A DNA stretch of 64,000 nt from Tanypteryx hageni. Its lineage: Eukaryota; Arthropoda; Insecta; Odonata; Petaluridae. The notes under the pieces were generated by a model. The model saw nothing but the letters and a program-made list of their open reading frames with translations. It made no database searches and was not told where the DNA came from. The DNA is taken from positions 57,596,057 to 57,660,056 of the forward strand of contig CM054120.1 in NCBI GenBank assembly GCA_028673005.1, written 5' to 3'. The translations under genes and the position numbers were made by a program. Below, one piece after another: positions 9,250-43,025 of this stretch (positions are counted from its first letter, which is position 1; the number at the start of each line of letters is the position of its first letter).

Positions 9250-12008
9250 TTAACTCTTAAGTAGTCATACCGGCGCACAATATGCGCCATAATGCAACAA
9301 AGTTGTGTTTTAGTTGGAAATCAAATTTTAAAAGTATCATTTGCCTCATATACCCTATTAGCCACTTTAAAACTATTTATAGGATAGGTGGTTACATTTT
9401 AATTCCAGTTTTTTGCATGTAGGGGTCTATATTTGCCTGCAGCGTTCACATTGTGGCACTTTGTGTGCCACGCGACCAGTTATGTAAGCATTTTTTCGTG
9501 TTTACTTTATCTCATTCCCCCTATTAGTCATTCTCAGACTAATAAAAGGAGATGTTGCTACACTTCAGTCCTAGTATTGTATGAGCTTTTCTCAGCTTTC
9601 TGCACCATTTATTCTAAATTAGTTTGTAAAGAAAGTGACATTTCAGTCCATGTGTTGTGAATGCATATTCTACATTTGTCCACAGCATTGGAACTACTTG
9701 GTGCACCATGTAAGTAAGAGTTTTTATACAATGTTTCTTTCTAAATATATATATAATAAATGTATATTGTGTGTTATGGATTATATATTGTGCTATATAT
9801 TCCTACTATATATTATATATCAGATATATTTCGCTATCATATTCTAAAAAAATATAACTTTTAGGGCCCAGAAAAATGTCAGATAATGATATAGCCGCTA
9901 CATTTAAAGAGCTACCGGAATCGGATATTGATGATAGTGATACGTGATCAGAAGAGGAGGTGATCTACTTTGAAGAGAACCACAACACAGATTCTGAGCA
10001 GATAGCTTCTTCAGAGGACAGTTCCATAACTGATGAAGATGAAGACAATACCTTTATTGGAAAAGACAGAACTACTGTTTGGAAGAAAAATCCCTGTAAA
10101 AGTAAATTTAGCAGAACACCTGCTTGTAATGTTTTGAGAAAAATTTTGCCTGGACCAAAAAGGAGAGTGCAAGTTGTGACAGACAAAATTACAGCCTTTA
10201 TGAAAATTATAGATCAAGAAATGATAAACATAATAGTATCTAGCACAAATCTAGTTATTGAAGAGAAATGTTCCGATCATACTTATACCAGAGATAGAGA
10301 TGTAAAACTGACAACAAAAACTGAAATATTAGCAGTTTTAGATCTTATCTACCTTTCTGGTGTCAAGAAACTAAATCATACTAGTTATCATGAACTATGG
10401 GTGGATGATGGTACTGGCATTGAAATATGTCATGCAACAATTACTTAGAGAAGATTTTTATTTTTATGTTGTATAAGTTTTGATGATAAAACAACTAGGA
10501 GTGAAAGGAAACAAACTGATAAGTTACCACCAATAAATGTATTTTTGGATAAATTTGTAAATAATTGCAAAGACATTCACCAGGTGAGTTTCTTATGGTA
10601 GATGAGAAATTAGAGCCATTTAGAGGATGCTGTAGTTTTATTCAATATATTCAAAGCAAGTCCGCAAAATATGGGTTGAAAATATTTGTACTTGCTGATT
10701 CTAAAACGTATTACATCTGTAATATGGAAGTTTATTGTGGAAAGCAGCCTAATGGATCATTTGCTGTTGATAACTCACCATCAGCAATTGTGTCTAGGTT
10801 AACTAATATTGTAAAAGGAACCAAAAGAAATGTAACTTGTGATAACTGGTATACTAGGTATCCTCTAGCTCTGTCACTACTAGAAGACAAACTAACATTC
10901 CTGGGTACTGTTAGGAAAAATAAAAAAGAATTGCCTATTGAGGTTTTACCAAACAAAATGCGAACGATTGGAACTTAATTATTCACATTTCAAGAGAAAA
11001 TAACATTAGTGTCGTACGTGCCAAAAAAAAAGAAGTCCGTTCTTTTATTTTCCACAATGCACCATGATGAATCTATCAACGAGGAAACTAAAAAACCAGA
11101 AATGATCATGGATTATAATATGATAAAAGGAGGTGTGGACACTGTGGACCAGATGAGTGGAACATATTCAGTATCCAAAAGAACATGAAGGTGGCCTATT
11201 GCATTGTTTTTTGGTCTACTAATTGTTGCAGAAATAAATGCACTTCTGCTCTATAATGCTTCCCACTGCGACTCTCCTTGCAGGTATAGAAGGGTTTTCT
11301 TAAAAAATCTTTCAATTAGTTTACTAAAAGAGCAGTTAAAGGAAAGAATGAAAATCAAAAGTATTCTGGCTAACATAAACTCAATCATTTCTAAACATGT
11401 TGAGAAGCCAAAACATGAAGACGAAGATGAGCCATCATTGAAAAGAAAATGCAAAGACAGTGAATGCCAGAAAAAGAGGGTAAGATGTGTTGCATGTGAA
11501 CATGCAAAAAATAGTAATACCACCCTTAAATGTGGAAAATGTAAACAATTTGTTTGCAAGATGCACATTGCAGAAATTACTTCTATTTGTGAAGCATGTC
11601 ATAATGACAATTTGAGTGAGTAGCATAATTAAAAATGTACATCCATATAATTAATTGTATTTTGGTAGATAGCAGCATAAAAGAATTTAATTATGTAAAA
11701 TGTTCATGTAAACAATAACATTAAGGTAATTCATATTGTGACTTATGACAAAATAAGCTTATGCCATCACTCTATTACAATTATTAATAACATAACCAGA
11801 TTAGTACATCTAAAATGCCATTTCAGCTTTTAAATGTTAAAATATTTCATGGCCTTAATCTAATAAACATTGGTAATACTGAAAATTAACTTGTTCATGT
11901 ATAGTATATTTCATGTGTCTTTAAGAGTACTAAAAATTTTAATGGTGCACAAAGTGTGCCATGCAACTAGTTATGTTATGGAAGTGGGTGTGACTACTTA
12001 AGGGTTAA
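9250..12008 (+). mobile_element. piggyBac transposon with TTAA duplications
   Basis: The element proper is 9254-12004 (2,751 bp), flanked by TTAA at 9250-9253 and 12005-12008. The right end reads CCCTTAAGTAGTCACACC on the reverse strand. The left end reads CTCTTAAGTAGTCATACC, so the left terminus has lost its second C. Subterminal sequences GGCGCACAATATGCGCC (left) and GGTGCACAAAGTGTGCC (right) are short palindromes. A single transposase gene runs left to right. Size, TTAA target and termini fit a nearly full-length autonomous piggyBac that has begun to decay. Confidence 0.93.
9876..11623 (+). pseudogene. piggyBac transposase, few disabling mutations
   Basis: ATG 9876 opens an acidic N-terminus (MSDNDIAATFKELPESDIDD) stopped by TGA at codon 24, after which the same frame resumes to TAG 10446-10448. 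The catalytic domain continues in other frames. The first Asp block is EFLMVDEKLEPFRG (about 10580-10627) and the second is NVTCDNWYTRYPLA (about 10830-10870). After TAA near 10976 the third Asp block GGVDTVDQMSG is at about 11130-11160. The C-terminal cysteine-rich domain (CVACEH...CGKCKQFVCKMH...CEAC) ends at 11623. All three catalytic aspartates and the zinc-binding cysteines are present. Only about four to five stops or shifts separate the pieces, which suggests fairly recent loss compared with the neighbouring hAT. Confidence 0.92.
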
Positions 12009-13673: not shown

Positions 13674-15080
13674 GAAACCGATTGCATCAGGAATAAATAG
13701 CCCAACCTATAACTTGGCCAAATGGCTTAATAGTGAATTTAAACAGGTGTCCTTTCCCGACAAACACTCTGTTAAAAATACCTATGACATGATAAATAAT
13801 CCAAAAAACATAATATTAAAAGAGTCTGGGATTTTGGTCTCCTTTGACGTTAAAAGCCTCTTCCCAAGTGTACCTCTGGAAGAAACATCCCAAATTTTAA
13901 AATGATTGTTACTAAAACAAAATTTTTCTGATGAAATTCTCCTCGAATATTTACAACTTACTAATTTATGCATGTCACAGAACGTTTTTCTAGTCAAAAA
14001 TGAAATTTACAAACAAACACAAGGCACTTCTATGGGAAACCCCCTATCTTCTTTTATAGCCAACATTTTCATGTCCTCTTTTGAAAACGATTGCAAAGAA
14101 AAATTTCATTACTTATGGTTGAGGTATGTGGATGACATATCCACAATCTTTGATTTAAAGAAACAAAATGTAGATGAATTTGTTAATCAGTTAAACAACA
14201 TATATCCTTCAATTAAGTTCTCTTATGAACTTCAAGAAAACAACACCTTGCCATTTTTGGACTTGCTTATCATAAATAATAGACAACACATTGAGTTTGA
14301 CATTTTTAGAAAACCTACACATACTGATAACTTCATTCCTAACAACTCCTTTCACCCTATGAACCAAAAAATAGCTGTGTTTCAATTTTTAACACACAGA
14401 TTATGTAACATCCCCTTCAATAAAATCAGATATGCAAAGGAACTCAAACACATAAAACAAATTGCCGCTAAACTTGGATACGATAATAATTTAGTTAATA
14501 AATTAGTGAGAAAACATAACTTTAGTAAAACCTTGTCCAATGCCACTTCCCTCAAATTAGACAACAAAAAAAGGACAAATATGTAAAATTGCCTTATTTT
14601 CCACTATTAAACAGAGGCTTGAACAAAATTTTTAAACATAAGAATTATACCATAACATATACAAATCCTTATAATTTGAAAAATTTACGGGGCAGTACAA
14701 AAGACAGAACAGAATCTTTGAACAAGTCCAGTATTTATAAAATATAATGCTCACACTGCGACAAAAAGTACATAGAACAAACAAGAAGGAAACTAATTAC
14801 ACGCTTCAAGGAACACATGGCTCACTATAAATATAATCATTTTGAAAAATCAAGCGTTGCCAACCACATCTTTGAAACAGGTCATAGTATACACGTAAAC
14901 GATCTAACATTAATAACTTCAGCCAATAACTCACTAAACTCGTTAGAAAACCTTCACATTTACAAAAACCGCGATACACTTATGAACACAGACAGATTTC
15001 AACAAGACCCTATACAAACTGACAGATTTAAACGACACACACGCCGAAAAATCTTTCCGCGCTTCACTTGTTTCTCAGTC
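13674..15080 (+). pseudogene. PLE RT and GIY-YIG endonuclease, interrupted
   Basis: The frame opens with SGILVSFDVKSLFPSVPLEE and is cut by TGA at 13903-13905. It resumes in phase with QGTSMGNPLSSFIANIFMSS, the catalytic RYVDDISTIF and LPFLDLLIINN up to 14586. A frameshift near 14575 separates the linker KLPYFPLLNRGLNKIFKHKN. The endonuclease follows with SSIYKI in place of SGIYKI, a TAA, and YIEQTRRKL in place of YIGQTRRKL, so both the GIY and YIG hallmarks are damaged. The end of the domain (HIFETGHSIHVNDLTLI) is intact. A later shift near 14995 scrambles the tail. It is the same subfamily as the copy at 36.8-38.4 kb. Confidence 0.92.
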
Positions 15081-15145
15081 GTCTTCTTAATACTTTCCGT
15101 TTCAAACCTTGCAGTTGGCTCCCAGTCACTTTTGAAACAGGATTT

Positions 15146-15186
15146 ACCCCTGACAATGCCCACTTTGTGGGTGAAATACATTGGGT
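15146..15186 (+). ncRNA. Hammerhead ribozyme motif, inactivated
   Basis: The layout matches the intact copy at 38344-38384: stem I ACCC/GGGT (15146-15149 with 15183-15186), core C3-U-G-A at 15150-15153, stem II GCCCAC/GTGGGT, GAAA at 15173-15176, a one-pair stem III and UU at the cleavage position. Here the core reads CTGACAA instead of CTGACGA, so the catalytic G8 is an A and cleavage should be lost. Hammerhead ribozymes in PLE ends are established; this assignment is by core motif and pairing. Confidence 0.6.
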
Positions 15187-15231
15187 GTTGTAACCCTCTA
15201 ATTGTTTGGCTAAAGGAATATTTCACCTTTA

Positions 15232-16137
15232 ATAATCCAAGAGGTTGACTAGCCAAAAATACACATACACTATGGTATTAGCGGTGTGTCAACGGTGGGT
15301 CAAGTTTTCTACGTGGTGAACCACATTGGTGTTTGCAAATTCCTCGACGGGCCGTACTAGACATAATACCGTGTGTTAACTAAAGGTTCTGACGTATCAA
15401 ATCAGTGAATTTAGTTTTTAAGGTTAACATTTCAATATCTAGTGTTTTGTTGTGGTAATTCGAGTGTATATAATTTGTGTTAAATCTCTTTTTAGCAATT
15501 ACTTCCCGGAACACAAAATGCTCTCGAGGGCCGCAGGTTTTTCCCTAGGCTTAGAAACAACGATAAGAGCAAGGGAGGTAAGATTTTCACGATAATTTAG
15601 GCTGTTGACAGACATGATTTTAGGATCCGTCCGTCTGACCGTTTGCCTTTATAGCAGGATTTTAGGAAGCCCAATAGGAACGTGCCCGTTATTATTGCAA
15701 AGTTTCGTTTTGTTTACGTTATTAAAGCAATGAAGATGAAATGGATAAATATCATATTACAACTGTTTATCTTCGATTAGGTATGTTTGAAACTACAAGC
15801 AAGGAGAGGAGGTCGAAGATTCCATAAATACTCGAGAACACTCTATAAAATGTGCTATGATATCTACATTTGCAGTTCTTTTTTTACTTGTTTAGCATTG
15901 TACTTCTTCTGCGCAAGTCACCTAGTCCATGGCTCAAGCCACCTGCTACCGATGCTACCTGTGGCAAACTGTACCACAACTTAAAAAACGTATAGCGCCC
16001 TACGCATAATCACTTATGTTTTGGAACGTAATTTTGCTTAAGCCTTTTTTACTGCTCCTTAGAAAATAGCCATATAATATTTTATTGTCTGTCTCATAAG
16101 TGACCCATTGGAAAACAACGAATACATTCTGCGGTCC
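15232..16137. other. Non-coding stretch
   Basis: No coding or repeat feature that I can support between the PLE end and the hAT MITE. Confidence 0.55.
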
Positions 16138-26641: not shown

Positions 26642-27696
26642 TAATCCTTTCCCTGGAAGAATACCAGATGTCTACCATTTTTTAAATTCTCCCTCTTACC
26701 AAGTCTTGATTATCCCAAATCTGTTTAAAATTGGTTTAGATGAGCTTTTCCGAAAACTACCTTTCATTACTCCTTAACGATCCCCCTCCGACGTTAACGT
26801 TCATATTCATTTCGAAATGGTATATAGATCTTAAATCTCTTTTTTCTCAACGGTGTGTGAACAGAAGAGTGTGATACTTGAAAATAGGAAGATAGTATAC
26901 TTCGTTCAGCGAAAATAATTTCTTTTTGAGCTGAGGATATCATCGTTCATGCAGAGGAAAACTGCACATACGTAGTGTTTATTTTATTTATATAATCGAG
27001 GAGGTATATCAAGTAATATGTTTTATTTTCTACTCGAAAGTTTTTTTATTGCTTTCCGTTCATAACTCCTAAGTTGTTTTGAGTTTTTGATAAAATTGTT
27101 GTTAAGCAGTTATTAAAGATAATTTGAATACCGAGCTAAATCTTTCATAATTGTAACATCTTAACAATATTAACTATTGAACTATTAAATGTTCACTCAT
27201 TTTGGAAGAGTGAGTTTACCGTAATGTACTCTTGTATTCAGTCCTTTTATCGGGTATCCTTATATTTATCGATTTATATAAACAAGATAGCTTTTGAATA
27301 CGACAGGATTCCTTGATTTAGTAGAAGGAGGATCAGCGGAATTGCAGGGCGATCATTTGATCGTAAGCCCGGCGCCAGTGTTTTAGTATTTTCAAGATTC
27401 TTCCTTTGTTAATTATATCCTCATAGAAGATGATGTATACTAGTTTTACTAGTGGAAGTTATTTTTATCAGCAACATTCCAAATAAGTGTTTGTATATAT
27501 AGGGTTACGTTTGGTTTCGCACTTATTTGTACATCACATAGATCCGCGATGGTTTGCTAATACTCAGAAAGTTATAAAAGTTCTAGAGGTAGGTCGAAAA
27601 TATCTTAAAGTGTGGATTGCTAAATTAGATTTGATATATGTTCTGGCATGTAATACTAAAAGGTGGGGAAATATTATGGTATTTTGGTAGGAGAGA
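26642..27696. other. Non-coding stretch
   Basis: No gene or repeat that I can support, up to the left edge of the La-exon tandem array. Confidence 0.5.
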
Positions 27697-29653
27697 AAGT
27701 TTGAGGAATGTTCTCAACAGTTTTTAAAAATACTTGGATAAAATTCAATAAATAAAATTAAACGCGATGAATGTTTAACTTCTTTTCAATAATTAGCAAA
27801 TTAATCAAGATCTTTTATGACCAAAAACCAAATAAAGTACAATTACCATGAATTTCGATCGAAAAATCGACGAAATCTAGTAAATGGAATTTTTCAGATA
27901 TAATGCAAATCATTAGTTTTATTTTTTTGTCTTCTCAACCATCTTAGTGATACCATTATTTCGGCGATCGTTTGTAGATGTAGCGAATTCATATTCCATA
28001 ACGATTTCTCCAAATAATATTCGAATTATTACACTTACTAATTCATTGGATTTTTAAATATCTTATAATGAAAATACGAAGTCGGGAGTTGGACGTAGGA
28101 ATGCAGGAATAATTGAAGTTTTGTTTTCTTATAGTAAAAAAAATACTATATCTAATTGAGCTTGTATATTGACAAAATAACCCAAAAATATTGGAATTTT
28201 TGATTGTTCATTGAGGTAACGGGAGACAGTATTGACTTTAAACCAAATGTTTGACGAGTTTTATAAGTTTCGTTCAAGCAGATATTATATTACATGTTTA
28301 TCTTTATATTTATATATCGACAGTGTTTTCGTTTAAAATGGTTATAAAAAAGATGTAAATCGACACATAAACGGTCAGCATTGTTATTAGTGGGTAAAGA
28401 AGGAATACATGGGGATATGGATGAAATAAAAAAAAAACTATTGAAAAAATACAAAATATGCTTAGGGTAACTGAGTTAACCCGCTTGGCAGAGGAAAGTT
28501 TAATGAGATAATTTCCGTTTGACTCAGGTTAGGTTTGGTGAATATGATGTTAAATACCTATTGGAGGGCGAACATTACCTGCAGATGAGGTTGTTGCACA
28601 TTGGGGAAACATAGACTGAAATTCTTCCACATATTCATCTCTTTCTCTCATACACATTTTGGTGACGCAATCGTCTTGGCCGTTAATTTCGACAATGCCT
28701 ACGCAAGCATCTTCACCTGATCTAACCTTCTAGTGGATCTCTTCAGATAAATTCTCTTGTTAGTATGTTCTCTTTTCAATTAGATTTCGTTTGTTTCATG
28801 AACGGAAGATTATCCGGGCATAAATTAAATTGCCTGGATTACATTTTAGTCTCACTTACGTTCCCCTTGTTTTGCTCCTTGAGACTTAATTAAGTCAGTT
28901 TTTGAAGAGAACAGCTTCCTTCACCCAACTTGCATTCAAAATGTTATTCTATATCTAAGATTAATATGTTAAGCTGTATTTTCATAGATTATTTATATCT
29001 TACTAACATTTTTCTAAGAAGAGTTGCTAAGGCGTAGAACAGCATCTTTTTGGTGTGAATGTACCGGTTTCTGTTACTTTTATCCTTCAGCGCCCCAAAA
29101 ATTCTTCTAAAACGTTAAATAGTGATTATGGCAATAGAAAAAAAGGGTTGGCTATTTAAAATTTCTGTCATTAACAGTGTAAGCTTCAATCATTATTGTA
29201 TATCTTAAAAAAATAACAAAAACATTTTCTCCCTAAATTCTACTACAACATTACAGGAAATCCACCAAAATTTTCAAATACACTCACTTTGGTATAATGG
29301 TTATCTTGTTACCTTGGTAATATACCTCGCGTTCCGCGAATTTTTCTGCGTCGCCTCGCGTCTCAAGGGTTACGTACAAAGTACCTTTAAATTCTGGGTT
29401 GCTAGTGAATTCGTTCTTAACATATACTCTCTGCAATAGAAGATGACAATTAGCATTATATGCCTGAATTTTAATACAGAGAAAAAAATTCCATTGCAAA
29501 CTAATTTTCCACCATGAAAGTTATATTTTTCAATACTAAAGTCTACGTCAGTCACAGAAATATAAGAAGCGTTACTTTAGGATGCTTCACATTGAGTAGC
29601 ATGCTATAATACGTTCTTTTCAGATTTATTATTTAATTTTCGAAAAACTCGTC
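27697..29653. repeat. Tandem unit 1 of the La-exon array (deleted)
   Basis: It aligns with unit 2 from the phrase AAGTTTGAGG onward. About 1 kb is missing at 28720/28721, where CTTCACCTGA joins TCTAACCTTC; in unit 2 these lie at about 30675 and 31693. A 3-bp microhomology (TGA) at the joint fits end joining or replication slippage. The deletion removes exon A and the 5' part of exon B. Confidence 0.92.
28550..29430 (-). pseudogene. La-like 3' exons, unit 1: exon R kept, A lost, B truncated
   Basis: Exon R (29288-29430) has a good acceptor (CTATTGCAG) and donor (GTGAGT) and reads through with four substitutions relative to the other units (for example GTLYVTLETRG for GTLHVTFETRG). Exon A is absent. 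Exon B survives only as 28550-28720, from its internal GED region to TAA 28550-28552. The unit cannot supply a complete xRRM. Confidence 0.85.
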
Positions 29654-32628
29654 AAGTTTGAGGAAAGTTCTCAACCGTTTATAAAAATATTTGGAAAAAA
29701 TTCAATAAATAAAATTAAACGCGATGAATGTTTAACTGCTTTTCAATAATTAGCAAATTAATCAAGATCTTTTATGACCAAAAACCAAATAAAGTACAAT
29801 TACCATGAATTACGATCGAATAATCGACAAAATCTAGTAAATGGAATTTTTCAGATATAAGTTAAGTCATAAGTTTTATTTTTTTGTCTTCTTAACCATC
29901 TTAGTGATACCATTATTTCGGCGATCGTATGTAGATGTAGCGAATTCATATTACATAATGATTTCTCCAAATAATAATAGTATTATTACACTTACTTCTT
30001 CATTGGATTATTAAATATCTTATAATGAAAATACGAAGTCGGGAGTTGGACGTAGGAATGCAGAAATAATTGAAGTTTATTTTTCTTATATTCAAAATAA
30101 ATACTATATCTAATTGAGCTTGTATATCACAAAATAACGCAAATATATTGGAATTTTTGATTGTTCATTGAGGTAACCGGAGACAGTATTGACTTTAAAC
30201 CAAATGTGCGACGAGTTTTATAAGTTTCGTTCAAGCAGATATTATATTACATCTTTATCTTTATATTTATATATCGACAGTGTTTTCGTTTAAAATGGTT
30301 ATAAAAAAGATTTAAATCGACACATAAACGGTCAGCATTGTTCTTTGTGGGTAAAGAAGGAATACATGGGGATATGGATGAAATAAAAAAAACTATTAAA
30401 AAAATACAAAATATGGTTGGGGTAACTGAGTTAACCCGCTTGGTAGAGGAAAGATTAATGAGATAATTTCCGTTTGACTCAGGTTAGGTTTGGTGAATAT
30501 CATGTTATATACCTATTGGAGGGCGAACATTACCTGCAGATGAGGTTGCTGCGCATTGGGGAAACATAGACTGAAATTCTTGCACATATTCATCTCTTTC
30601 TCTCATACTCATTTTGGTGACGCAAGCGGCTTGGCCGTTAATTTCGACAATGGCTACGCAAGCATCTTCACCTGAGTTTGCCTCTGTTGCCAGACGCAAT
30701 GTTCTCTCCGCACTTTTTGCAAAGCGTATCAACTGGAAATAGCAGTAAGAGGCAATAATTAATTTGAATATCGTAGAAGTGCATATTTTCTTATTAAAAC
30801 TCGACTGTAAGGAATTATAATGAATACTGTTAATAATTATTTACATCATATTTATGAGAAATGGGAGATCAAAATTTTGACAGAGGAAAAGTTGAGATGT
30901 ACAGTACAAAGACAAACGCATAAATAAAATTTTACCAAGTTAGCATCTCCTATAAACAACACACGTCCTGTTTGATCTGAGTGATTATATTCCACGTAGA
31001 AAATGTTTAATCGGGTTAAACATTCCCTTCTTGCCGTTGTGTTCCACATGATCTCTAAAGACCGCTTTATGGACACTTTCGTTGCCAATGTAGACACACA
31101 TATGATTTTCACCACATTGCCCTTGATAAAAAGGAATTTATATTACAATGAAAATATCTTTTAGAATTTCATGAATTAAATTAATTGTAAAGTAATTTCT
31201 TGCTTTTTAACTAACATCATAGTTAATAAAACAATCTAAAGACTAACATGAATATAATTACTGTTTATTCTACACAAAAGTATGCTGTTACTCGAAAAGT
31301 AAATTTATATGGATTGTATTCGAAAAGTCACACTCTACTGGGTTTAGTAGGGGTGACATATTTTTCAGTCTTCTGTCTTGGCAAATTACAAGGCCGTTCT
31401 ATAGTGGAGATGAATTTATAAATTCATCTAGTGTTAACATAAGCTTTAGAAACTGAAAATTCTAATGTTTATCAACGCTATTTTATATACTTAATGCTAT
31501 TATGACGAAGTCTGTTGCAATGTAAATTGCTTAGTGATGAATGGATAGTAATTGTGAATTTCTGACATGTTCTAGATTCATACTGGAAACGACTCCTCCT
31601 ACGTCTCCTGTCTTCCGCTGCCTCCTTCATTTCCCAATCCTCGCTTATTCCAAGATCTCTATTTTTCTACATCTTCTTTTTCTTCCTTTGATCTAACCTT
31701 CTAGTGGATCTCTCCAGATAAATTCTCTTGTTAGTATGTTCTCTTTTCAATTAGATTTCGTTTGTTTCATGAACGGAAGATTATCCGGGCATAAATTAAA
31801 TTGCCTGGATTACATTTTAGTCTCACTTACGTTCCCCTTGTTTTGCTCCTTGAGACTTAATTAAGTAAGTTTTTGAAGAGAACAGTGCCCTTCACCCAAC
31901 TTGCATTCAAAATGTTATTCTATATCTAAGATTAATATGTTAAGCTGTATTTTCATAGATTATTCATATCTTACTAACCTTTTTTCTCAGAAGAGTTGCT
32001 AAGGTGTAAAACAGCATATCTTTGGTGTGAGTGAACCGGTTTCTGTTATTTGTATCCTTCAGTGCCCAAAAAATTCTTCTGAAACGTTAAATAGTGATTA
32101 TGGCAATATATCAAAAGTCTTGGCTATTTAAAATTTCTGTCATTAACAGTGTAAGCTTCAATCATTATTGTATATCTTAAAAAAATAACAAATACGTTTT
32201 CTCCTTAAATTCTACTACAACATTTCAGGAAATCCACCAAAATTTTCAAATACACTCACTTAGGTATAATGGTTATCTTGTTACCTTGGTAATATACCTC
32301 GTGTTCCGCGAATTTTTCTGCGTCGCCTCGCGTCTCAAAGGTTACGTGCAAAGTACCTTTGAATTCTGGGTTGCCAGTGAATTCGTTCTTAACATATACT
32401 CTCTTGCAATAGAAGATGACATTTACCATTATATGCCTGAATTTTAATACACAGAATAAAAAATTCCATTGCAAACTAATTTTCCACCATGAAAGTTATA
32501 TTTTTCAATACTAAAGTCTACGTCAGTCACAGAAATATAAGAAGCGTTACTTGAGGATGCTTCACATTGAGTAGCATGCTATAATACGTTCTTTACAGAT
32601 TTATTATTTAATTTTCGAAAAACTCGTC
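29654..32628. repeat. Tandem unit 2 of the La-exon array (~2.97 kb)
   Basis: It is very similar to units 3 and 4 over its whole length, including introns, and is spaced 2,975 bp from unit 3. The unit begins and ends inside what corresponds to intron 3 of the La-like gene, so each unit carries exons R, A and B plus flanking introns. Confidence 0.95.
30505..32402 (-). CDS. La-like 3' exons, unit 2: the only fully open set
   Basis: Three exons are intact. Exon R (32260-32402, 143 bp) encodes the second half of RRM1, with the RNP1-type FKGTLHVTF. Exon A (30936-31121, 186 bp, phase 0 at both ends) and exon B (30505-30732, stop TAA 30505-30507) together encode 137 residues resembling the C-terminal xRRM of La. 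The IFYVEYNHSDQTGRVLF block corresponds to xRRM strands beta2-beta3. The acceptors are GCAAG, ATCAAG and TTTCCAG; the donors are GTGAGT and GTAAAA. R ends in phase 2 and A begins in phase 0, so a small linker exon is needed between them. A charged stretch at about 31560-31715 is a candidate but contains a stop in the long frame in every unit. The upstream exons lie at 40.3-40.9 kb. Confidence 0.7.
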
Positions 32629-35601
32629 ATGTTTGAGGAAAGTTCTCAACAGTTTATAAAAATATTTGGAAAAAATTCAATAAATAAAATTAAACGCGAT
32701 GAATGTTTAACTGCTTTTCAATAATTAGCAAATTAATCAAGATCTTTTATGACCAAAAACCAAATAAAGTACAATTACCATGAATTACGATCGAATAATC
32801 GACAAAATCTAGTAAATGGAATTTTTCAGATATAAGTTAAGTCATAAGTTTTATTTTTTTGTCTTCTTAACCATCTTAGTGATACCATTATTTCGGCGAT
32901 CGTATGTAGATGTAGCGAATTCATATTACATAACGATTTCTCCAAATAATAATCGTATTATTACACTTACTTCTTCATTGGATTATTAAATATCTTATAA
33001 TGAAAATACGAAGTCGGGAGTTGGACGTAGGAATGCAAAGATAATTGTAGTTTTGTTTTCTTATAGTCAAAATAAATACTATATCTAATTGAGCTTGTAA
33101 ATTGACAAATCAACCCAAAAATATTGGAATTTTTGATTGTTCATTGAGGTAACGGGAGACAGTATTGACTTTAAACCAAATGTGCGACGAGTTTTATAAG
33201 TTTCGTTCAAGCAGATATTATATTACATGTTTATCCTTATATTTATATATCGACAGTGTTTTCGTTTAAAATGGTTATAAAAAAGATTTAAATCGACACA
33301 TAAACGGTCAGCATTGTTCTTAGTGGGTAAAGAAGGAATACATGGGGATATGGATGAAATAAAAAAAACTATTGAAAAAATACAAAATATGGTTGGGGTA
33401 ACTGAGTTAACCCGCTTGGCAGAGGAAAGTTTAATGAGATAATTTCCGTTTGACTCAGGTTAGGTTTGGTGAATATGATGTTAAATACCTATTGGAGGGC
33501 GAACATTACCTGCAGATGAGGTTGCTGCACATTGGGGAAACATAGACTGAAATTCTTGCACATATTCATCTCTTTCTCTCATACTCATTTTGGTGACGCA
33601 AGCGGCTTGGCCGTTAATTTCGACAATGGCTACGCAAGCATCTTCACCTGAGTTTGCCTCTGTTGCCAGACGCAATGTTCTCTCCGCACCTTTTGCAAAG
33701 CGTATCAACTGGAAATAGCAGTAAGAGGGCAATAATTAATTTGAATATCGTAGAAGTGCATATTTTCTTATTAAAACTCGACTGTAAGGAATTATAATGA
33801 ATACTGTAAATAATTATTTACATCATATTTATGAGAAATGGGAGATCAAAATTTTGACAGAGGAAAAGATGAGATGTACAGTACAAAGACAAACGCATAA
33901 AGAAAATTTTACCAAGTCAGCATCTCCTATAAACCACACATGTCCTGTTCGATCTCAGTGATTATATTCCACTTGGAAATTTTAATCGGGTTAAACATTC
34001 CCTTCTTGCCGTTGTGTTCCACATGATCTCTAAAGACCGCTTTATGGACACTTTCGTTGCCAATGTAGACATACATAGGATTTTCACCACATTGCCTTGA
34101 TAAAAAGGATTTTATATTACAATGAAAATATCTTTTAGCATTTCATGAATTAATTTAATTGTAAAGTTATTACTTGCTTTTTAACTAACATCATAGTTAA
34201 TAAAACAATCTAAAGACTAACATGAATATAATTACTGTTTATTCTACACAAAAGTATGCTGTTACTCGAAAAGTAAATTTATATGGATTGTATTCGAAAA
34301 GTCACACTCTACTGGGTTTAGTAGGGGTGACATATTTTTCAGTCTTCTGTCTTGGCAAATTACTAGGCCGTTCTATAGTGGAGATGAATTCATAAATTCA
34401 TCTAGTGTTAACAAAAGCTTTAGAAACTGAAAATTCTAATGTTTATCAATGCTATTTTATATTCTTAATACTATTATGACGAAGTCTGTTGCAATGTAAA
34501 TTGCTTAGTGATGAATGGATAGTAATTGTGAATTTCTGACATGTTCTAGATTCATACTGGAAACGACTCCTCCTACGTCTCCTGTCTTCCGCTGCCTCCT
34601 TCATTTCCCAATCCTCGCTTATTCCAAGATCTCTATTTTTCTACATCTTCTTTTTCTTCCTTTGATCTAACCTTCTAGTGGATCTCTTCAGATAAATTCT
34701 CTTGTTAGTATGTTCTCTTTTCAATTAGATTTCGTTTGTTTCATGAACGGAAGATTATCCGGGCATAAATTAAATTGCCTGGATTACATTTTAGTCTCAC
34801 TTACGTTCCCCTTGTTTTGCTCCTTGAGACTTAATTAAGTAAGTTTTTGAAGAGAACAGTGCCCTTCACCCAACTTGCATTCAAAATGTTATTCTATATC
34901 TAAGATTAATATGTTAAGCTGTATTTTCATAGATTATTCATATCTTACTAACCTTTTTTCTCAGAAGAGTTGTTAAGGCGTAGAACAGCATATCTTTGGT
35001 GTGAATGTACCGGTTTCTGTTTTTTGTATCCTTCAGTGCCCAAAAATTCTTCTAAAACGTTAAATAGTGATTATGGCAATATATCAAAAGGCTTGGCTAT
35101 TTAAAATTTCTGTCATTAACAGTGTAAGCTTCAATCATTATTGTATATCTTAAAAAAATAACAAATACGTTTTCTCCTTAAATTCTACTACAACATTACA
35201 GGAAATCCACCAAAATTTTCAAATACACTCACTTTGGTATAATGGTTATCTTGTTACCTTGGTAATATACCTCGCGTTCCGCGAATTTTTCTGCGTCGCC
35301 TCGCGTCTCAAAGGTTACGTGCAAAGTTCCTTTGAATTCTGGGTTGCCAGTGAATTCGTTCTTAACATATACTCTCTTGCAATAGAAGATGACAATTAGC
35401 ATTATATGCCTGAATTTTAATACACAGAAAAAAAAATTCCATTGCAAACTAAATTTCCACCATGAAAGTTATATTTTTCAATACAAAGGTCTACGTCAGT
35501 CACAGAAATATAAGAAGCGTTACTTGAGGATGCTTCACATTGAGTAGCATGCTATAATACGTTCTTTACAGATTTATTATTTAATTTTCGAAAAACTCGT
35601 C
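32629..35601. repeat. Tandem unit 3 of the La-exon array (2,973 bp)
   Basis: It aligns end to end with units 2 and 4, with few differences in exons or introns. High intron similarity shows recent duplication or ongoing homogenisation. Confidence 0.95.
33481..35375 (-). pseudogene. La-like 3' exons, unit 3: exon A frameshifted
   Basis: Exon R (35233-35375) is intact and closest to the consensus. Exon A (33913-34095) is 183 instead of 186 bp. One base is missing at the acceptor (ATCAAG then GCAATG instead of GGCAATG) and two in the middle, so the xRRM frame hits a stop within four codons. Exon B (33481-33708, TAA 33481-33483) is open. The unit cannot make the xRRM unless exon A of another unit is used. 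Confidence 0.85.
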
Positions 35602-36249
35602 AAGTTTGAGGAAAGTTCTCAACAGTTTATAAAAATATTTGGAAAAAATTCAATAAATAAAATTAAACGCGATGAATGTTTAACTGCTTTTCAATAATTA
35701 GCAAATTAATCAAGATCTTTTATGACCAAAAACCAAATAAAGTACAATTACCATGAATTACGAACGAATAATCGACAAAATCTAGTAAATGGAATTTTTC
35801 AGATATAATGCAAGTCATTAGTTTTATTTTTTTGTCTTCTTAACCATCTCAGTGATACCATTATTTGGGCGATCGTATGTAGATGTAGCGAATTCATATT
35901 ACATAACGATTTCTCCAAATAATAATCGTATTATTACACTTACTTCTTCATTGGATTATTAAATATCTTATAATGAAAATACGAAGTCGGGAGTTGGACG
36001 TAGGACGTAGGAATGCAGAAATAATTGAAGTTTATTTTTCTTATATTCAAAATAAATACTATATCTAATTGAGCTTGTATATTGACAAAATAACCCAAAT
36101 ATATTGGAATTTTTGATTGTTCATTGAGGTAACCGGAGACAGTATTGACTTTAAACCAAATGTGCGACGAGTTTTATAAATTTCGTTCAAGCAGATATTA
36201 TATTACATCTTTATCTTTATATTTATATATCGACAGTGTTTTCGTTTAA

Positions 36250-36421
36250 AATGGTTATAAAAAGATTTAAATCGACACATAAACGGTCAACATTTTTCTT
36301 AGTGGGTAAAGAAGGTATACATGGGGATATGGATGAAATAAAAAAAACTATTGAAAAAATACAAAATATGGTTGGGGTAACTGAGTTAACCCGCTTGGCA
36401 AAGGAAAGTTTAATGAGATAA
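36250..36421 (+). CDS. Small plus-strand ORF convergent to exon B, unknown
   Basis: A 56-codon frame starts at ATG 36250 and ends at TAA 36419-36421 (LVGKEGIHGDMDEIKKTIEK is its core). The same C-terminal 40-odd codons are kept at about 28380-28511, 30335-30466 and 33310-33442. In those units one extra A after ATGGTTATA breaks the ATG-proximal part. Few changes occur in the shared part, but the flanks are also well conserved, so conservation alone does not prove coding. It could be a terminal exon of another gene or a chance frame. Function unknown. Confidence 0.3.
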
Positions 36422-36756
36422 TTTCCGTTTGACTCAGGTTAGGTTTGGTGAATATGATGTTAAATACCTATTGGAGGGCGAACATTACCTGCAGATGAGG
36501 TTGCTGCACATTGGGGAAACATAGACTGAAATTCTTGCACATATTCATCTCGTTCTCTCATACTCATTTTGGTGACACAAGCGGCTTGGCCGTTAATTTC
36601 GACATTGCCTACGCAAGCATCTTCACCTCAGTTTGCATCTGTTGCCAGACGCAATGTTCTCTCCGCACTTTTTGCAAAGCGTATCAACTGGAAATAGCAG
36701 TAAGAGGGCAATAATTTATTTGAATATCGTAGAAGTGCATATTTTCTTATTTAAAG

Positions 36757-36770
36757 TCGACTGTAAGGAA
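36757..36770. repeat. 14-bp PLE target duplication, left
   Basis: TCGACTGTAAGGAA at 36757-36770 recurs at 38431-38444, just outside the PLE. Units 2 and 3 show the same site once and uninterrupted (for example near 30799), so the empty site is known. Confidence 0.92.
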
Positions 36771-36851
36771 AATTGATAGTAGCTCAATAACTTTGGCCAA
36801 AACTAACAAAAGTAGAATACTCCTTTAGCCAAAACAACTAGAGGGCTGCAA

Positions 36852-36892
36852 ACCCAATGAATTTCGCCCACAAGGTGGGCATCGTCAGGGGT
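36852..36892 (-). ncRNA. Hammerhead ribozyme motif (PLE left arm)
   Basis: On the minus strand: stem I ACCC/GGGT, core CTGACGA, stem II GCCCAC-CTT-GTGGGC, GAAA, a minimal stem III (A-U pair closing a four-base loop TTCA) and U at the cleavage site. One extra U lies between A9 and stem II. All invariant core bases are present. PLE ends are known to carry such minimal type I hammerheads. Confidence 0.65.
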
Positions 36893-36946
36893 AGAACCTG
36901 TTTCACCAGTGACTGGAAGCCAACTGCCAGGTTGAAACGGAAAGTA

Positions 36947-37457
36947 TTAAGAAGACGACCGAGAAACAAGCGAAACGCGGAAAGATTTTTCGGCGTGTGT
37001 GTCGTTTAAATCTGTCAATTTGTATAGGGTCTTGTTGAAATCTGTGTCTGTGTTCATAAGTGTATCGCGGTTTTTGTGAATGTGAAGGTTTTCTAACGAG
37101 TTTAGTGAGTTTTTGGCTGAAGTTATCAGTGTTAAATCGTTTACGTGTATACTATGACCTGTTTCAAAGATGTGGTTGGTAACGCTTGAAATTTCAAAAC
37201 GATTATATTTATTGTGAGCCATGTGTTCCTTGAAGCGTGTTATTAATTTCATTCTTGTTTGTCCTATGTACTTTTTGCCGCAGTGTGAGCATTGTATTTT
37301 ATAAATACCGGACTTGTTCAAAGATTCTGTTCTGTCTTTTGTACTGCCCAGTAAGTTTTTCAAATTTAAAGGATTTGTATATGTTACGGTATAGTTCTTA
37401 TGTTTAAAAATTTTGTTCAAGCCTCTGTTTAATGGTGGAAAATAAGGTAATTTTACA
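36947..37457 (-). pseudogene. PLE GIY-YIG endonuclease, left arm
   Basis: The frame from about 37457 to the stop at 36947 reads KLPYFPPLNRGLNKIFKHKN, then the endonuclease with SGIYKIQCSHCGKKYIGQTR, the catalytic-region RFKEHMAHNKYNRF and HIFETGHSIHVNDLTLI. The Cys-X2-Cys between GIY and YIG is the metal-binding feature of PLE endonucleases. The RT is absent because of truncation at the inversion junction; open sequence upstream of 37459 belongs to the other arm read backwards. Confidence 0.9.
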
Positions 37458-37574
37458 ACTTGCTTATCATAAAAAATAGATAACACATTGAGTTTGACAT
37501 TTTTAGAAAACCTACACATACTGTTAACTTTATTCCTAACAACTCCTTTCACCCTATGAAGCAAAAACAGCTGT

Positions 37575-38289
37575 GTTTCAATTTTTAACACACAGATTAT
37601 GTAACATCCCCCTCAATAAAATCAGATATGCAAAGGAACTTAAACACATAAAACAAATTGCCGCTAAACTTGGATACGATAATAATTTAATTAATAAATT
37701 AGTTAGAAAACATAACTTTAATAAAACTTTGTCCAATGCCACTTCCCTAAAATTAGACACCAAAAAAGAGGACAAATTTGTAAAATTACCTTATTTTCCA
37801 CCATTAAACAGAGGCTTGAACAAAATTTTTAAACATAAGAATTATACCGTAACATATACAAATCCTTTTAATTTGAAAAATTTACTGGGCAGTACAAAAG
37901 ACAGAACAGAATCTTTGAACAAGTCCGGTATTTATAAAATACAATGCTCACACTGCGACAAAAAGTACATAGGACAAACAAGAAGGAAACTAATAACACG
38001 CTTCAAGGAACACATGGCTCACTATAAATATAATCGTTTTGAAAATTCAAGCGTTGCCAACCACATCTTTGAAACAGGTCATAGTATACACGTAAACGAT
38101 TTAACACTGATAACTTCAGCCAATAACTCACTAAACTCGTTAGAAAACCTTCACATTCACAAAAACCGCGATACACTTATGAACACAGACACAGATTTCA
38201 ACAAGACCCTATACAAATTGACAGATTTAAACGACACACACGCCGAAAAATCTTTCCGCGTTTCGCTTGTTTCTCGGTCGTCTTCTTAA
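37575..38289 (+). pseudogene. PLE RT C-terminus and GIY-YIG endonuclease, right arm
   Basis: The frame (FQFLTHRLCNIPLNKIRYAK onward) covers the end of the RT, the linker (KLPYFPPLNRGLNKIFKHKN) and a complete, open GIY-YIG domain (SGIYKIQCSHCDKKYIGQTR, RRKLITRFKEHMAHYKY, NHIFETGHSIHVNDLTLI) to a TAA at 38287-38289. Sequence from 37460 continues the RT upstream in a shifted frame, lost by a small deletion near 37562. The catalytic YVDD part is missing, so there is no autonomous activity, but the endonuclease itself has no stop. Confidence 0.92.
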
Positions 38290-38343
38290 TACTTTCCGTT
38301 TCAACCTGGCAGTTGGCTTCCAGTCACTGGTGAAACAGGTTCT

Positions 38344-38384
38344 ACCCCTGACGATGCCCACCTTGTGGGCGAAATGCATTGGGT
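38344..38384 (+). ncRNA. Hammerhead ribozyme motif (PLE right arm)
   Basis: Stem I ACCC (38344-38347) pairs with GGGT (38381-38384). The core is CTGACGA (38348-38354) and stem II is GCCCAC (38356-38361) with GTGGGC (38365-38370). GAAA follows at 38371-38374, then an A-U closed TGCA loop and U38380 as the predicted cleavage nucleotide. All invariant core bases are intact. Confidence 0.65.
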
Positions 38385-38430
38385 TTGCAGCCCTCTAGTT
38401 GTTTTGGCTAAAGGAGTATTCTACTTTTGT

Positions 38431-38444
38431 TCGACTGTAAGGAA
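38431..38444. repeat. 14-bp PLE target duplication, right
   Basis: Exact repeat of 36757-36770. Confidence 0.92.
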
Positions 38445-40306
38445 TTATAATGAATACTGTAAATAATTATTTACATAATATTTATGAGAAATGGGAGATC
38501 AAAATTTTGACAGAGGAAAAGATGAGATGTACAGTACAAAGACAAACGCATAAAGAAAATTTTAACAAGTCAGCATCTCCTATAAACAACACACGTCCTG
38601 TTCGATCTGAGTGATTATATTCCACGTAGAAAATGTTTAATCGGGTTAAACATTCCCTTCTTGCCGTTGTGTTCCACATGATCTCTAAAGACCGCTTTAT
38701 GGACACTTTCGTTGCCAATGTAGACACACATATGATTTTCACCACATTGCCCTTGATAAAAAGGAATTTATATTACAATGAAAATATCTTTTATAATTTC
38801 ATGAATTAATTTAATTGTAAAGTAATTTCTTGCTTTTAACTAACATCATAGTTAATAAAACAATCTAAAGACTAACATGAATATAATTACTGTTTATTCT
38901 ACACAAAAGTATGCTGTTACTCGAAAAGTAAATTTATATGGATTGTATTCGAAAAGTCACACTCTACTGGGTTTAGTAGGGGTGACATATTTTTCAGTCT
39001 TCTGTTTTGGCAAATTACAAGGCCGTTCTATTGTGGAGATGAATTTATAAATTCATCTAGTGTTAACATAAGCTTTAGAAACTGAAAATTCTAATGTTTA
39101 TCAATGCTATTTTATATTCTTAATGCTATTATGACGAAGTCTGTTGCAATGTAAATTGCTTAGTGATGAATGGATAGTAATTGTGAATTTCTGACATGTT
39201 CTAGATTCATACTGGAAACGACTCCTCCTACGTCTCCTGTCTCCGCTGCCTCCTTCATTTCCCAATCCTCGCTTATTCCAAGATCTCTATTTTTCTACAT
39301 CTTCTTTTTCTTCCTTTGATCTAACCTTCTAGTGGATCTCTTCAGATAAATTCTCTTGTTAGTATGTTCTCTTTTCAATTAGATTTCGTTTGTTTCATGA
39401 ACGGAAGATTATCCGGGCATAAATTAAATTGCCTGGATTACATTTTAGTCTCACTTACGTTCCCCTTGTTTTGCTCCTTGAGCCTTAATTAAGTCAGATT
39501 TTGAGGAGAACGGCTGCCTTCACCCAACTTGCATTCAAAATGTTATTCTATATCTAAGATTAATATGTTAAGCTGCATTTTCATAGATTATTCATATCTT
39601 ACTAACCTTTTTTCTCAGAAGAGTTGCTAAGGCGTAGAACAGCATCTCTTTGGTGTGAATGTACCGGTTTCTGTTTTTTGTATCCTTCAGAGCCCCAAAA
39701 ATTCTTCTTAAACGTTAAATAGTGATTATGGCAATAGATCAAAAAGCTTGGCTATTTATAATCTCTGTCATTAACAGTTTAAGCTTCAATCATTATTGTA
39801 TATCTTAAAAAAATAACAAATACGTTTTCTCCTTAAATTCTACTACAACATTTCAGGAAATCCACCAAAATTTTCAAATACACTCACTTAGGTATAATGG
39901 TTATCTTGTTACCTTGGTAATATACCTCGCGTTCCGCCAATTTTTCTGCGTCGCCTCGCGTCTCAAAGGTTACGTGCAAAGTACCTTTGAATTCTGGGTT
40001 GCCAGTGAATTCGTTCTTAACATATACTCTCTGCAATAGAAGATGACAATTAGCATTATATGCCTGAATTTTAATACGGAGAAAAATAATTCCATTGCAA
40101 ACTAAATTTCCACCATGAAAGTTATATTTTTCAATACTAAAGTCTACGTCAGTCACAGAAATATAAGAAGCGTTACTTGAGGATGCTTCACATTGAGTAG
40201 CATGCTATAATACGTTCTTTACAGATTCATTATTTAATTTTAAAAAAACTCTTCATTTTACTTGTGTTTATTTTGCTATAGACATTATAAATTACTTCGT
40301 GCAAAC

Positions 40307-40906
40307 CTGATAATATGCATATCCTTTGAAGAAGGAAAGATATTTGGAAAGATGTATAAATTCTGTGTTAGCATCAAAACCAACACAGAAAACTGTTCTC
40401 TGGGTCAGGTAATATGCATTTCCCTTGTATTGATGCAGCATTCTACCTCCTGTCAATCTCACAAGCTTTTCTGTGACATCTTGCTAAAAATGAATACAAT
40501 TTTTGTTAAAATTTTATTGTAAATCAATTAAATCGATAATTATAACTTTTAAATATCTCTAAATCATGGCCATTATTTTCTCTCATTGTCTGAAAGACGG
40601 TTTCAGCATCTGCTCCAAGAGCCTTCATAGGATCATAGTTTATGACATCTTCTAAGTATACCCATCCACCATCATCGTCCCAGTTATACTCGAGATTTAC
40701 TCCCGGCTTCGTACAAGTGACGCTTAAGAACCCCTTTTAAATATTTTGCAAATATATAAGACGGAATGATGTTTCGAATCTACTTGCTTGATGTGATTGA
40801 GTAATGACGCAAGGATACGTTATGCGCGTAATGTTAATCATATCAAAATATTTACCTTGGTAAGGTATATTATTCTCCTTTCTAATACTCCGCCTGAGAT
40901 AGCCAT
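40307..40906 (-). CDS. La: La-family RNA-binding protein, 5' exons 1-3
   Basis: Three exons join in frame. Exon 1 (40856-40906, ATG 40904-40906, 17 codons, MAISGGVLERRIIYLTK) ends at donor AAG/GTAAAT. Exon 2 (40547-40733) encodes the C-terminal half of a La motif, NWDDDGGWVYLEDV then YDPMKALGADAETVFQTM, which aligns with the DDGWVPLE and LKAL blocks of La. Exon 3 (40307-40479) encodes the linker and the first half of RRM1 (RTVFCVGFDANTEFIHLSKY), ending CAG/GTTTGC in phase 0, which fits exon R. Intron 1 is about 122 bp and intron 2 is 67 bp. La proteins bind the UUU-OH ends of RNA polymerase III transcripts. The protein is very diverged, and the QxxYY...D.F signature of the La motif is not visible in exon 1 or 2. 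It could be a paralogue or a relic, but all three exons are stop-free. The acceptors of exons 2 and 3 are inferred from phase. Confidence 0.72.
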
Positions 40907-41640
40907 ATTTGAAGCAAATCCCGTTTTCTCAAAAAAGATGTATAGATTACTATTGGAATTACGCTGTGAATCGTTTCTTCTCGCGGTATTGTACACTAAT
41001 GCGCGCCATCTATAAATCCTTTATCACGTGATCATTTCATCGGATGATACGATACGATACGGCCGTTTCTTTGTCTTTAATTTGGTAAATGTTGATAACT
41101 TTGTGAAATGTAACAAAGGTATTACATAATAATTTCAACGAAAGTTGACTGGATGGAGCCACTAGTGCGGTTCTAGAACATTCTATTAAGAAAATGCAAA
41201 TTTGGTCTTTTTAAAAAGCGAGTAATTTATTTATTTATTCAAACCAGCTTTTATTCTAAGCTTTTTTTCCCACTGCAATAGTTTCCAAAATTTCAAGTCA
41301 GACTGCTATGCGCACTGCTGCACTCTGTGAATACTACTTAATTTTGACATTAATCAGAGTTGTAGCGCACACAAAAGAGATAGAAGTGACACCATTTTTA
41401 GAGTTATGTTTAGGGATTGTATTTCAGCTAACCCTTAGTGCTTTTTCATTTCCTGCGAGAGTTGTTGTAGCTAAAGCTGCTTAAAATTTTTCTTTCAACT
41501 ACGCCATTGATTCGTTGACTACTCCATGAATGGACTTCCAGTATTTAACTCCGCAAGCTAATATAGAATTTCTGCATTGTATAGTAAATAGCGACAAAAC
41601 TACACTAGCGGAAAAGCTAATAAAAAAATAATTCTGGACG
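40907..41640. other. 5' flank of the La-like gene
   Basis: This includes the inferred 5' UTR on the minus strand. A short GATAC repeat (about 41047-41061) is present. I see no certain promoter element and no gene. Confidence 0.4.
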
Positions 41641-41654
41641 ATATTACTTAGGGA

Positions 41655-41765
41655 TTGACTCTTCTGGCTAGAGGAGTGGGGGTGTGGTGGCCAATCACAG
41701 GTGGATGGGAGGGAAGCGAAGCTTTCACGCTTCCCTCCATTGGCTGTGAGATAGGAGAGTCTTTC
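41655..41765. repeat. Imperfect palindrome
   Basis: GGAGGGAAGCG (41708-41718) pairs exactly with CGCTTCCCTCC (41728-41738). Weaker complementarity extends outward (TCACAG with CTGTGA, GACTCT with AGAGTC). It sits just upstream of the hAT fragment and may be a collapsed MITE or an element end. Confidence 0.6.
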
Positions 41766-41899
41766 CCACCAACCTCTTTTCTAACCCGAAGTGCAAATTT
41801 CAAAGTAATTTTGTCCAGACTTTTTTTTAGTAGTCATTATTTATCTATATCTATCCTATGCGATGACAGCGTTGATCGTCCGCAAACTGATAAAATTTA

Positions 41900-42330
41900 A
41901 CTACTGCCTGAAGTTGTAAGCAAATCTGGTATAACCGAAGAATATTTTCTTGCGGCAAGTGAGCCAACCTGTTGCGGAGATAAGGCACTTGATAGTGCTA
42001 AGAAGTTTGTTGCAATCACAGATGAAGCTTCAGTAAACACTGGTGAAAAATCAGAATTGTGTGAGCTTTTTCAACCGAAATTTAGAAACAGTACCACTAA
42101 CATAGACCCTCCGCTTTTAAAAATCTGCTGTGCTGTGCACAAGTCTAATCTGGCATGGAAGTCGGCAAGTAAGTCCGTTGTTGACCTTAAGCACATATTT
42201 CAAGGACTCGTAGGATTCGGTTTAATATTATTCTTGTCATTTTTGAACTTGAAGACCTGAGGCACGTTGTGTGGAAGCATCTCAAGTGTTTTCAGTTTGG
42301 AGATTGCATTTCCTTCTAGTTGCTTATGCT
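41900..42330 (+). pseudogene. hAT-like transposase fragment
   Basis: A plus-strand frame reads SKSGITEEYFLAASEPTCCG, VAITDEASVNTGEKSELCEL, then PLLKICCAVHKSNLAWKSAS and DLKHIFQGLVGF. After a frameshift it continues with ELEDLRHVVWKHLKCF. The TDEASVNTG block and the CxxHxSNLAW block resemble the catalytic core of hAT transposases of the KIAA1586-like group. N- and C-termini are missing and no terminal repeats were found. Confidence 0.6.
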
Positions 42331-43025
42331 TTCAATATGAAAACGCGATATTTCGTGCATTTTTAAATCTCGTGATAAATGTACCTAATCAGTGTGACAA
42401 TTCACAGCATAATTATTACGATTAAAAAAATAAAATTCACACTAAACAAAACACGGCATCTTTTGATTTTGAATTAATCGACCGTTATAGAGGAAAGGAG
42501 AATGGTACCTTCCATTATTGTTTATCGTAAAATCACATTTTTAAAACTGTGCAGAACCTCTTCCAACCAAAAACTCGGTCAATTTGCCGGTAATACAAGG
42601 GTAAAGTAGCCAACTATTGAATGCTATTTACTTTTTTAGTGATATGGTGTTATTTATTACAATGAAAATACTTACGAATACTTGAATATATTTAAATCTG
42701 TTGCCCTTAACTTGACGACATTTAAAAACAACAAATAAAATCGCTAGAATAAGTAAGAAAATGCTAAATTAGAAAATGTAATTTTGAATGTGATCAAAAA
42801 GGCTTCCTAATATGGAATTCCCTTAACATGTATTTGCAATCAATTATTTACTTGCAAAAGTCGCAAACGTAAATGTCCTTCTCTGCCGCACTGCATACTT
42901 CATGGCGCCACCCTTGGCAAACAACACATGGCACTCACCTTTCACCTTTTATCTCTTCCTAAAACTTTTTACTGCAAAACAAGCACTGTGCCTCTTTGCT
43001 GCTTGGAGTTTTCGAATTCTCAAAG
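42331..43025. other. Non-coding stretch
   Basis: Nothing I can support. Confidence 0.5.

What the first reader, a model, noticed from the sequence alone, without database searches (positions are those of the whole stretch)
27697..40906. La-like gene with a fourfold tandem array of its 3' exons, in decay
The 5' exons (La motif, RRM1 first half) are single copy, while exons R, A and B (RRM1 second half, xRRM) are repeated four times with a 2.97-kb period. Unit 4 lost its exon A donor, has a nonsense codon in B and a PLE in the intron. Unit 3 has frameshifts in A, and unit 1 has lost A. Only unit 2 is open. If the gene works, splicing must reach about 8 kb past the broken sets, or transcripts end early and encode La without xRRM.
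Basis: partly seen in the sequence, partly recalled or inferred. Interest (0 to 1): 0.8.

Follow-up and report, generated by a model that had tools for sequence, protein, structure and literature searches.

The report
Dead La-gene copy, macrosatellite founder
A worn-out second copy of the gene for the RNA-binding protein La had its back half repeated four times here and about eighty times further along the same chromosome; it reads as a dead gene turned into repetitive DNA, while the ordinary La gene lies on another contig.

Summary
The array is real: on the minus strand, single-copy 5' exons are followed by four head-to-tail 2.97-kb units of a La-type gene's 3' exons. Over the 4 window units plus 21 units of a sister array, exon columns vary as often as intron columns (131/657 against 466/2320), evenly over codon positions (43/46/42), with neutral nonsynonymous:synonymous counts; an open unit 2 is chance survival. 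The same genome has an ordinary La gene on contig C5 (exons 1-5 read; 45-56% identical to five insect La proteins). The La-like copy is an old DNA-level duplicate (26% identity, same exon phases, La-motif core lost). Its 3' exons also form a second array of 76 located (about 80 expected) units over 232.5 kb, 1.36 Mb away on C9, with the same junction and homologous flanks; a third, inverted copy lies 0.33 Mb beyond. Best reading: a pseudogenised La paralogue that founded a macrosatellite. Transcription was not testable. New member of a known kind, moderately interesting because founder, four-unit and roughly eighty-unit stages survive on one chromosome.

The parts
40856..40906 (-). exon 1 of the La-like locus (51 nt), single copy
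   Evidence: open, GT donor, same phase as exon 1 of the C5 La gene
40557..40733 (-). exon 2 (177 nt, same length as in true La); La-motif core lost; splice donor lost (GAG|ATATTT)
   Evidence: L014 has GAG|GTATTT and true La GAG|GTAAGT at this place
40307..40483 (-). exon 3 (177 nt), first half of RRM1
35603..40259 (-). unit 4: R 39888-40030, L 39607-39706, A 38566-38751 (donor lost), B 36460-36687 (TGA)
36771..38430 (-). Penelope-like insertion in the A-B intron of unit 4; two 657-nt inverted arms; flanked by the 14-bp duplication TTCCTTACAGTCGA
   Evidence: GIY-YIG match E 0.0039, below Pfam's cut-off
32631..35602 (-). unit 3: R 35233-35375, L 34953-35051 (1-nt deletion), A 33913-34096 (deletions), B 33481-33708 (open)
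29654..32630 (-). unit 2: R 32260-32402, L 31979-32078, A 30936-31121, B 30505-30732, all open
27697..29653 (-). unit 1: R 29288-29430, L 29008-29106 (1-nt deletion), A deleted, B remnant 28550-28720
40906..42334 (-). upstream flank shared (91.7%) with the 5' side of the large C9 array (L014)
26908..27696 (-). downstream flank shared (about 91%, measured together with the end of unit 1) with L029 and, from 27049, with the inverted copy L028

Best explanation
An old DNA-level duplicate of the La gene diverged, lost its La-motif core and became a pseudogene. Its 3' part (exons R, L, A, B and the sequence after them) was tandemly duplicated through one junction with little homology. The locus with its flanks exists in three places on the same chromosome; in one of them unequal exchange expanded the block to about 80 units (232.5 kb), while the window copy has four. 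All copies examined evolve without coding constraint, so this is non-coding macrosatellite DNA with its founder locus still attached. Shown: the arrays, the shared junction and flanks, neutral exon evolution, the broken exon 2 donor, the separate La gene. Inferred: order of events, unequal exchange as the mechanism, lack of any product.
For: Variable exon 131/657 against intron 466/2320 columns, p 0.96; codon positions 43/46/42 and N:S:stop 106:32:7 against neutral expectation 110.6:34.8:10.0; exons less alike than introns in 6 of 6 window unit pairs; 21 of 21 large-array units disabled in L, A or B; exon 2 donor lost and the three GTs in the next 83 nt give stops 69-75 codons into exon 2; five codon differences from L014 in exon 2, one of which is really the donor, four real ones all nonsynonymous; La gene on C5; second array with the same junction in 12 of its 21 held loci and shared flanks.
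Against: Unit 2 is fully open. Outside exon L the exons vary slightly less than introns (98/557 against 466/2320, p 0.19). Exon L is unusually variable (33/100, p 0.003) and an intron stretch unusually quiet, which simple neutrality does not predict. The 21 units are the best-scoring matches to the La-like protein, not a random sample. Cryptic donors inside exon 2 were not tested. No expression data.
Confidence: 0.88

Rival explanations
1. The window locus is still a working, fast-evolving La-like gene that uses unit 2, or makes a short protein from the 5' exons with R (and L).
For: Exons 1-3 are open; unit 2 is open with GT/AG sites; it is the one place found with exons 1, 2 and 3 together (114 of 391 and 40 of 103 candidates scored).
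Against: Exon 2 donor lost with early stops from the three tested GTs; no coding constraint in repeated exons, unit 2 included; La-motif core lost.
Confidence: 0.05
2. The array makes RNA with a role, for example as a source of small RNAs, as Su(Ste) repeats do against Stellate.
For: Gene-derived tandem repeats on one chromosome; quiet intron stretch at unit columns about 800-900 and 950-1050 in both arrays.
Against: Longest exact match to true La exons 1-5, either strand, over the window locus and 8 array loci, is 14 nt; 20 shuffles gave 11-15. No intact La-like gene to target was found. The quiet stretch is only moderately quiet towards L028 (2.9-6.3% against 7.1%) and fits gene conversion as well.
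Confidence: 0.05
3. The repeated units are an assembly artefact (haplotypes or reads laid end to end).
For: Read depth was not available.
Against: Units differ by 2.3-4.8% within the window and 0.5-5.3% among 21 large-array units; one holds a PLE and one a 1-kb deletion; the 5' exons and flanks are not repeated with the units; the same junction occurs in two places 1.36 Mb apart. Exact copy number remains untested.
Confidence: 0.02

Closest known systems
Macrosatellites such as D4Z4 and DXZ4 (passages of PMC8122249 seen)
   Same: Kilobase-sized units in a long head-to-tail array at a chromosomal locus (D4Z4 3.3 kb; DXZ4 3 kb, 12-100 copies)
   Different: Here the unit is the 3' exons and introns of a La paralogue, no open product survives in the 21 units examined, and a founder locus with unrepeated 5' exons remains
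Stellate / Su(Ste) tandem repeats of Drosophila (abstract of PMC7874207 seen)
   Same: Tandem repeats derived from a protein-coding gene
   Different: No matching target gene or complementary stretch found here; sex linkage and small RNAs unknown
La protein gene (true La of the same genome, C5)
   Same: Exon order, similar exon lengths (51/177/177/143/100 against 60/177/183/146/106 nt) and the same phases over exons 1-5; RRM1 recognisable
   Different: 26% identity over 195 aa, La-motif core residues lost, frame no longer under selection, exon 2 donor lost

Membership tests
La (genuine La protein) | La motif with its conserved core | tested here: not met
   16 of 46 residues invariant in nine La proteins are kept; the YYF..D.NL..D core is lost. 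No Pfam La match in the window (five matches, all elsewhere)
La (genuine La protein) | RRM1 after the La motif | tested here: met
   Lupus La protein is the best PDB sequence match, E 8.6e-4, covering the end of the La motif and RRM1; hhalign 95.8%. DAZ-like RRMs follow at E 0.18 or worse
La (genuine La protein) | C-terminal xRRM | tested here: inconclusive
   A+B alone: hhalign probability 1.6%; the whole-model alignment runs into exon A
La (genuine La protein) | reading frame kept by selection | tested here: not met
Macrosatellite | kilobase-sized unit in many head-to-tail copies | tested here: met
   76 units located, median spacing 2962 bp, over 232.5 kb; four in the window
Macrosatellite | copies exchange sequence (concerted evolution) | tested here: inconclusive
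   Mean divergence 3.6% within each array against 5.4% between, and shared disabling changes in groups of units, fit homogenisation; conversion was not tested directly
Macrosatellite | copy number varies between individuals | not testable with these tools
   one assembly, no reads
Stellate-like silencing system | closely matching target gene elsewhere | tested here: not met
   14-nt longest match to true La exons 1-5; no intact La-like copy found (candidates partly scored)
Stellate-like silencing system | small RNAs from the repeats | not testable with these tools
   no RNA data

The most novel reading that the evidence does not exclude
The La-like array is a gene-derived macrosatellite that still does something as RNA or chromatin (a small-RNA source, or a constrained block in the L-A intron), with its founder locus, a four-unit intermediate and a roughly eighty-unit array all surviving on one chromosome.
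Probability: 0.08. Interest if true: 0.65.

Novelty: new member of a known kind. Interest (0 to 1): 0.38.

Why it matters
It shows stages of a macrosatellite's birth from a dying gene side by side: a locus that still has its unrepeated 5' exons, a four-unit array, an array of about 80 units, and an inverted copy, linked by a shared founding junction or shared flanks. Loss of constraint, homogenisation and expansion can be measured on the same sequence. For annotation it warns that open exons in unit 2 are not evidence of a gene.

Tried and rejected
First protein search with an incomplete splice model (no exon L): no hit at E <= 0.001 among 1132 candidates. Pfam: only matches below cut-off for the model, none for five pieces. 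Rfam and tRNA scans: nothing. A TFIIE-alpha resemblance of exon B (E 0.0044, below cut-off) was dropped because exon order and the La profile explain the model better. A frameshift inside exon 2 was considered and rejected: with the acceptor before 40733 the exon is in frame and 177 nt long, as in true La. I first ended exon 2 at 40548; earlier calls that include exon 2 carry three extra residues from that, and one search counted a codon (ATA/GTA) that is really the lost donor. Exon L's high variability was checked for selection: N:S counts look neutral. Literature searches: only listings with abstract starts were seen; no claim is made that this is absent from print.

Full report
WHAT IS THERE. 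On the minus strand, window 40906 to 27697 holds three single-copy exons followed by four head-to-tail copies of a 2.97-kb block. Each block carries exons R, L, A and B, or what is left of them. Unit 4 has lost the A donor, has TGA in B and carries a Penelope-like insertion with a 14-bp target-site duplication. Unit 3 has deletions that break L and A. Unit 1 lacks A and the first 57 nt of B and has a one-base deletion in L. Unit 2 is open in all four exons.

IDENTITY. The spliced model matches La: 'Lupus La protein' is the best PDB match at E 8.6e-4, over the end of the La motif and RRM1 (a shorter piece gave E 0.033, with DAZ-like RRMs at 0.054 or worse). A profile comparison with 20 La proteins (those with names are flies and moths) gives 95.8% over residues 38-276. 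A+B alone do not score, so the xRRM half is the weaker part.

THE TRUE LA GENE. The genome that holds the window (G000, 1.678 Gb; window at C9:57596057-57660056) has five Pfam La-motif matches, none in the window. The one at C5:148.243-148.247 Mb is ordinary La: Drosophila La finds it best among 4 matches. A search with its exons 1-5 gave 357 proteins at E <= 0.001 among 570 candidates, of which 120 were listed; the best row naming an organism is Periplaneta La. In a ten-row alignment it is 56% identical to Periplaneta La and 45-53% to seven other La proteins (four insect, two crustacean, one mollusc), against 22% for the La-like model; pairwise BLAST gives 26% over 195 aa, E 1e-14. Only exons 1-5 of this gene were read, so 'intact' is not shown for its 3' end. 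Exon lengths are 60, 177, 183, 146 and 106 nt in true La and 51, 177, 177, 143 and 100 nt in the La-like copy, with the same phases, which speaks for duplication at DNA level and not a retrocopy (inference). The La-like copy keeps 16 of 46 residues invariant in nine La proteins and has lost the YYF..D.NL..D core.

IT READS AS DEAD. Exon 2 ends GAG|GTAAGT in true La, GAG|GTATTT in the sister copy L014, and GAG|ATATTT in the window. The three GTs in the next 83 nt each lead to a stop 69-75 codons into exon 2; cryptic sites inside exon 2 were not tested. Four window units and 21 units of the large array were compared; these 21 are the array units among the loci that cut out for its best matches, out of 76 located. 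131 of 657 exon columns and 466 of 2320 intron columns vary, p 0.96; without exon L it is 98 of 557, p 0.19. Variable exon sites fall 43/46/42 on codon positions, and nonsynonymous:synonymous:stop is 106:32:7 where the intron spectrum predicts 110.6:34.8:10.0. All 21 large-array units have at least one disabling change in L, A, B or their splice sites (exon R was not examined there). Within the window exons are less alike than introns in 6 of 6 unit pairs. Unit 2 is thus the one open unit of 25.

WHERE IT WENT. A search with the La-like protein gave 124 matches, all on C9 (114 of 391 candidates scored, so a lower bound). Eight are the window; the rest are one array, a 5' remnant at C9:56.2915 Mb (L014) and an inverted copy at C9:55.70 Mb (L028) (recount). 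With the DNA search (40 matches, 40 of 103 candidates scored) 76 units are located between C9:56032487 and 56265024, median spacing 2962 bp, three gaps, about 80 expected. The array is 1.36 Mb from the window locus, L028 another 0.33 Mb beyond. L014 shares the window's upstream flank at 91.7% but lacks exons 1 and 3 and the start of exon 2; L029 at the array's 3' end shares the downstream side at 91%, as does L028. The unit-to-unit junction TTCCTCAAACTTGACGAG is the same in the window and in 12 of the 21 large-array loci, with one variant; the other loci did not show the searched string. L028 has a 20-bp deletion in R, lacks the start of A and has no stop in B; its exons are as divergent from the units as its introns (7-10% against 7%). 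Mean divergence is 3.6% within each array and 5.4% between them; the flanks are 8-9% apart. The order of events (duplication, copying of the locus, expansion and homogenisation) is inferred from these distances.

OPEN POINTS. Exon L varies more than introns in both arrays (7.9 against 3.2% and 7.0 against 3.5%; 33 of 100 columns, p 0.003). Unit columns about 800-900 and 950-1050 vary little in both arrays, with ordinary values between; the longest unchanged run has permutation p 0.006 in four window units and 0.0135 in three. Conversion, mutation bias or a small constrained element could explain these. Transcription, small RNAs, copy number by depth and sex linkage were not testable.

COMPARISON. 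As a structure it is a macrosatellite, like D4Z4 or DXZ4 (passages of PMC8122249). It superficially resembles the Stellate and Su(Ste) repeats (abstract of PMC7874207), but no complementary target was found.

Noticed in passing
31979-32078 (unit 2) and its copies: Exon L is about twice as variable as the introns in both arrays, yet its nonsynonymous:synonymous counts look neutral.
   Followed up: partly
31580-31850 (unit 2) and copies: A stretch of the L-A intron is unusually unchanged in the window units and partly in the large array; cause unknown.
   Followed up: partly
92-1198 (-), 13906-15248 (+): Further Penelope-like pieces: reverse-transcriptase matches above Pfam's cut-off; 14253-15230 is 94% identical to the insertion in unit 4.
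   Followed up: partly
9948-10978 (+) and 60321-60620 (-): DDE_Tnp_1_7 transposase pieces, probably piggyBac-type (label recalled).
   Followed up: no
6880-7320 (+): DUF4371 match below cut-off (E 0.00012), a hAT-type transposase remnant by its look.
   Followed up: no
L037 (G000:C5:147.09 Mb): A La-motif protein in one open frame of 546 aa, 1.15 Mb from the true La gene; LARP6-like is a recalled guess.
   Followed up: no
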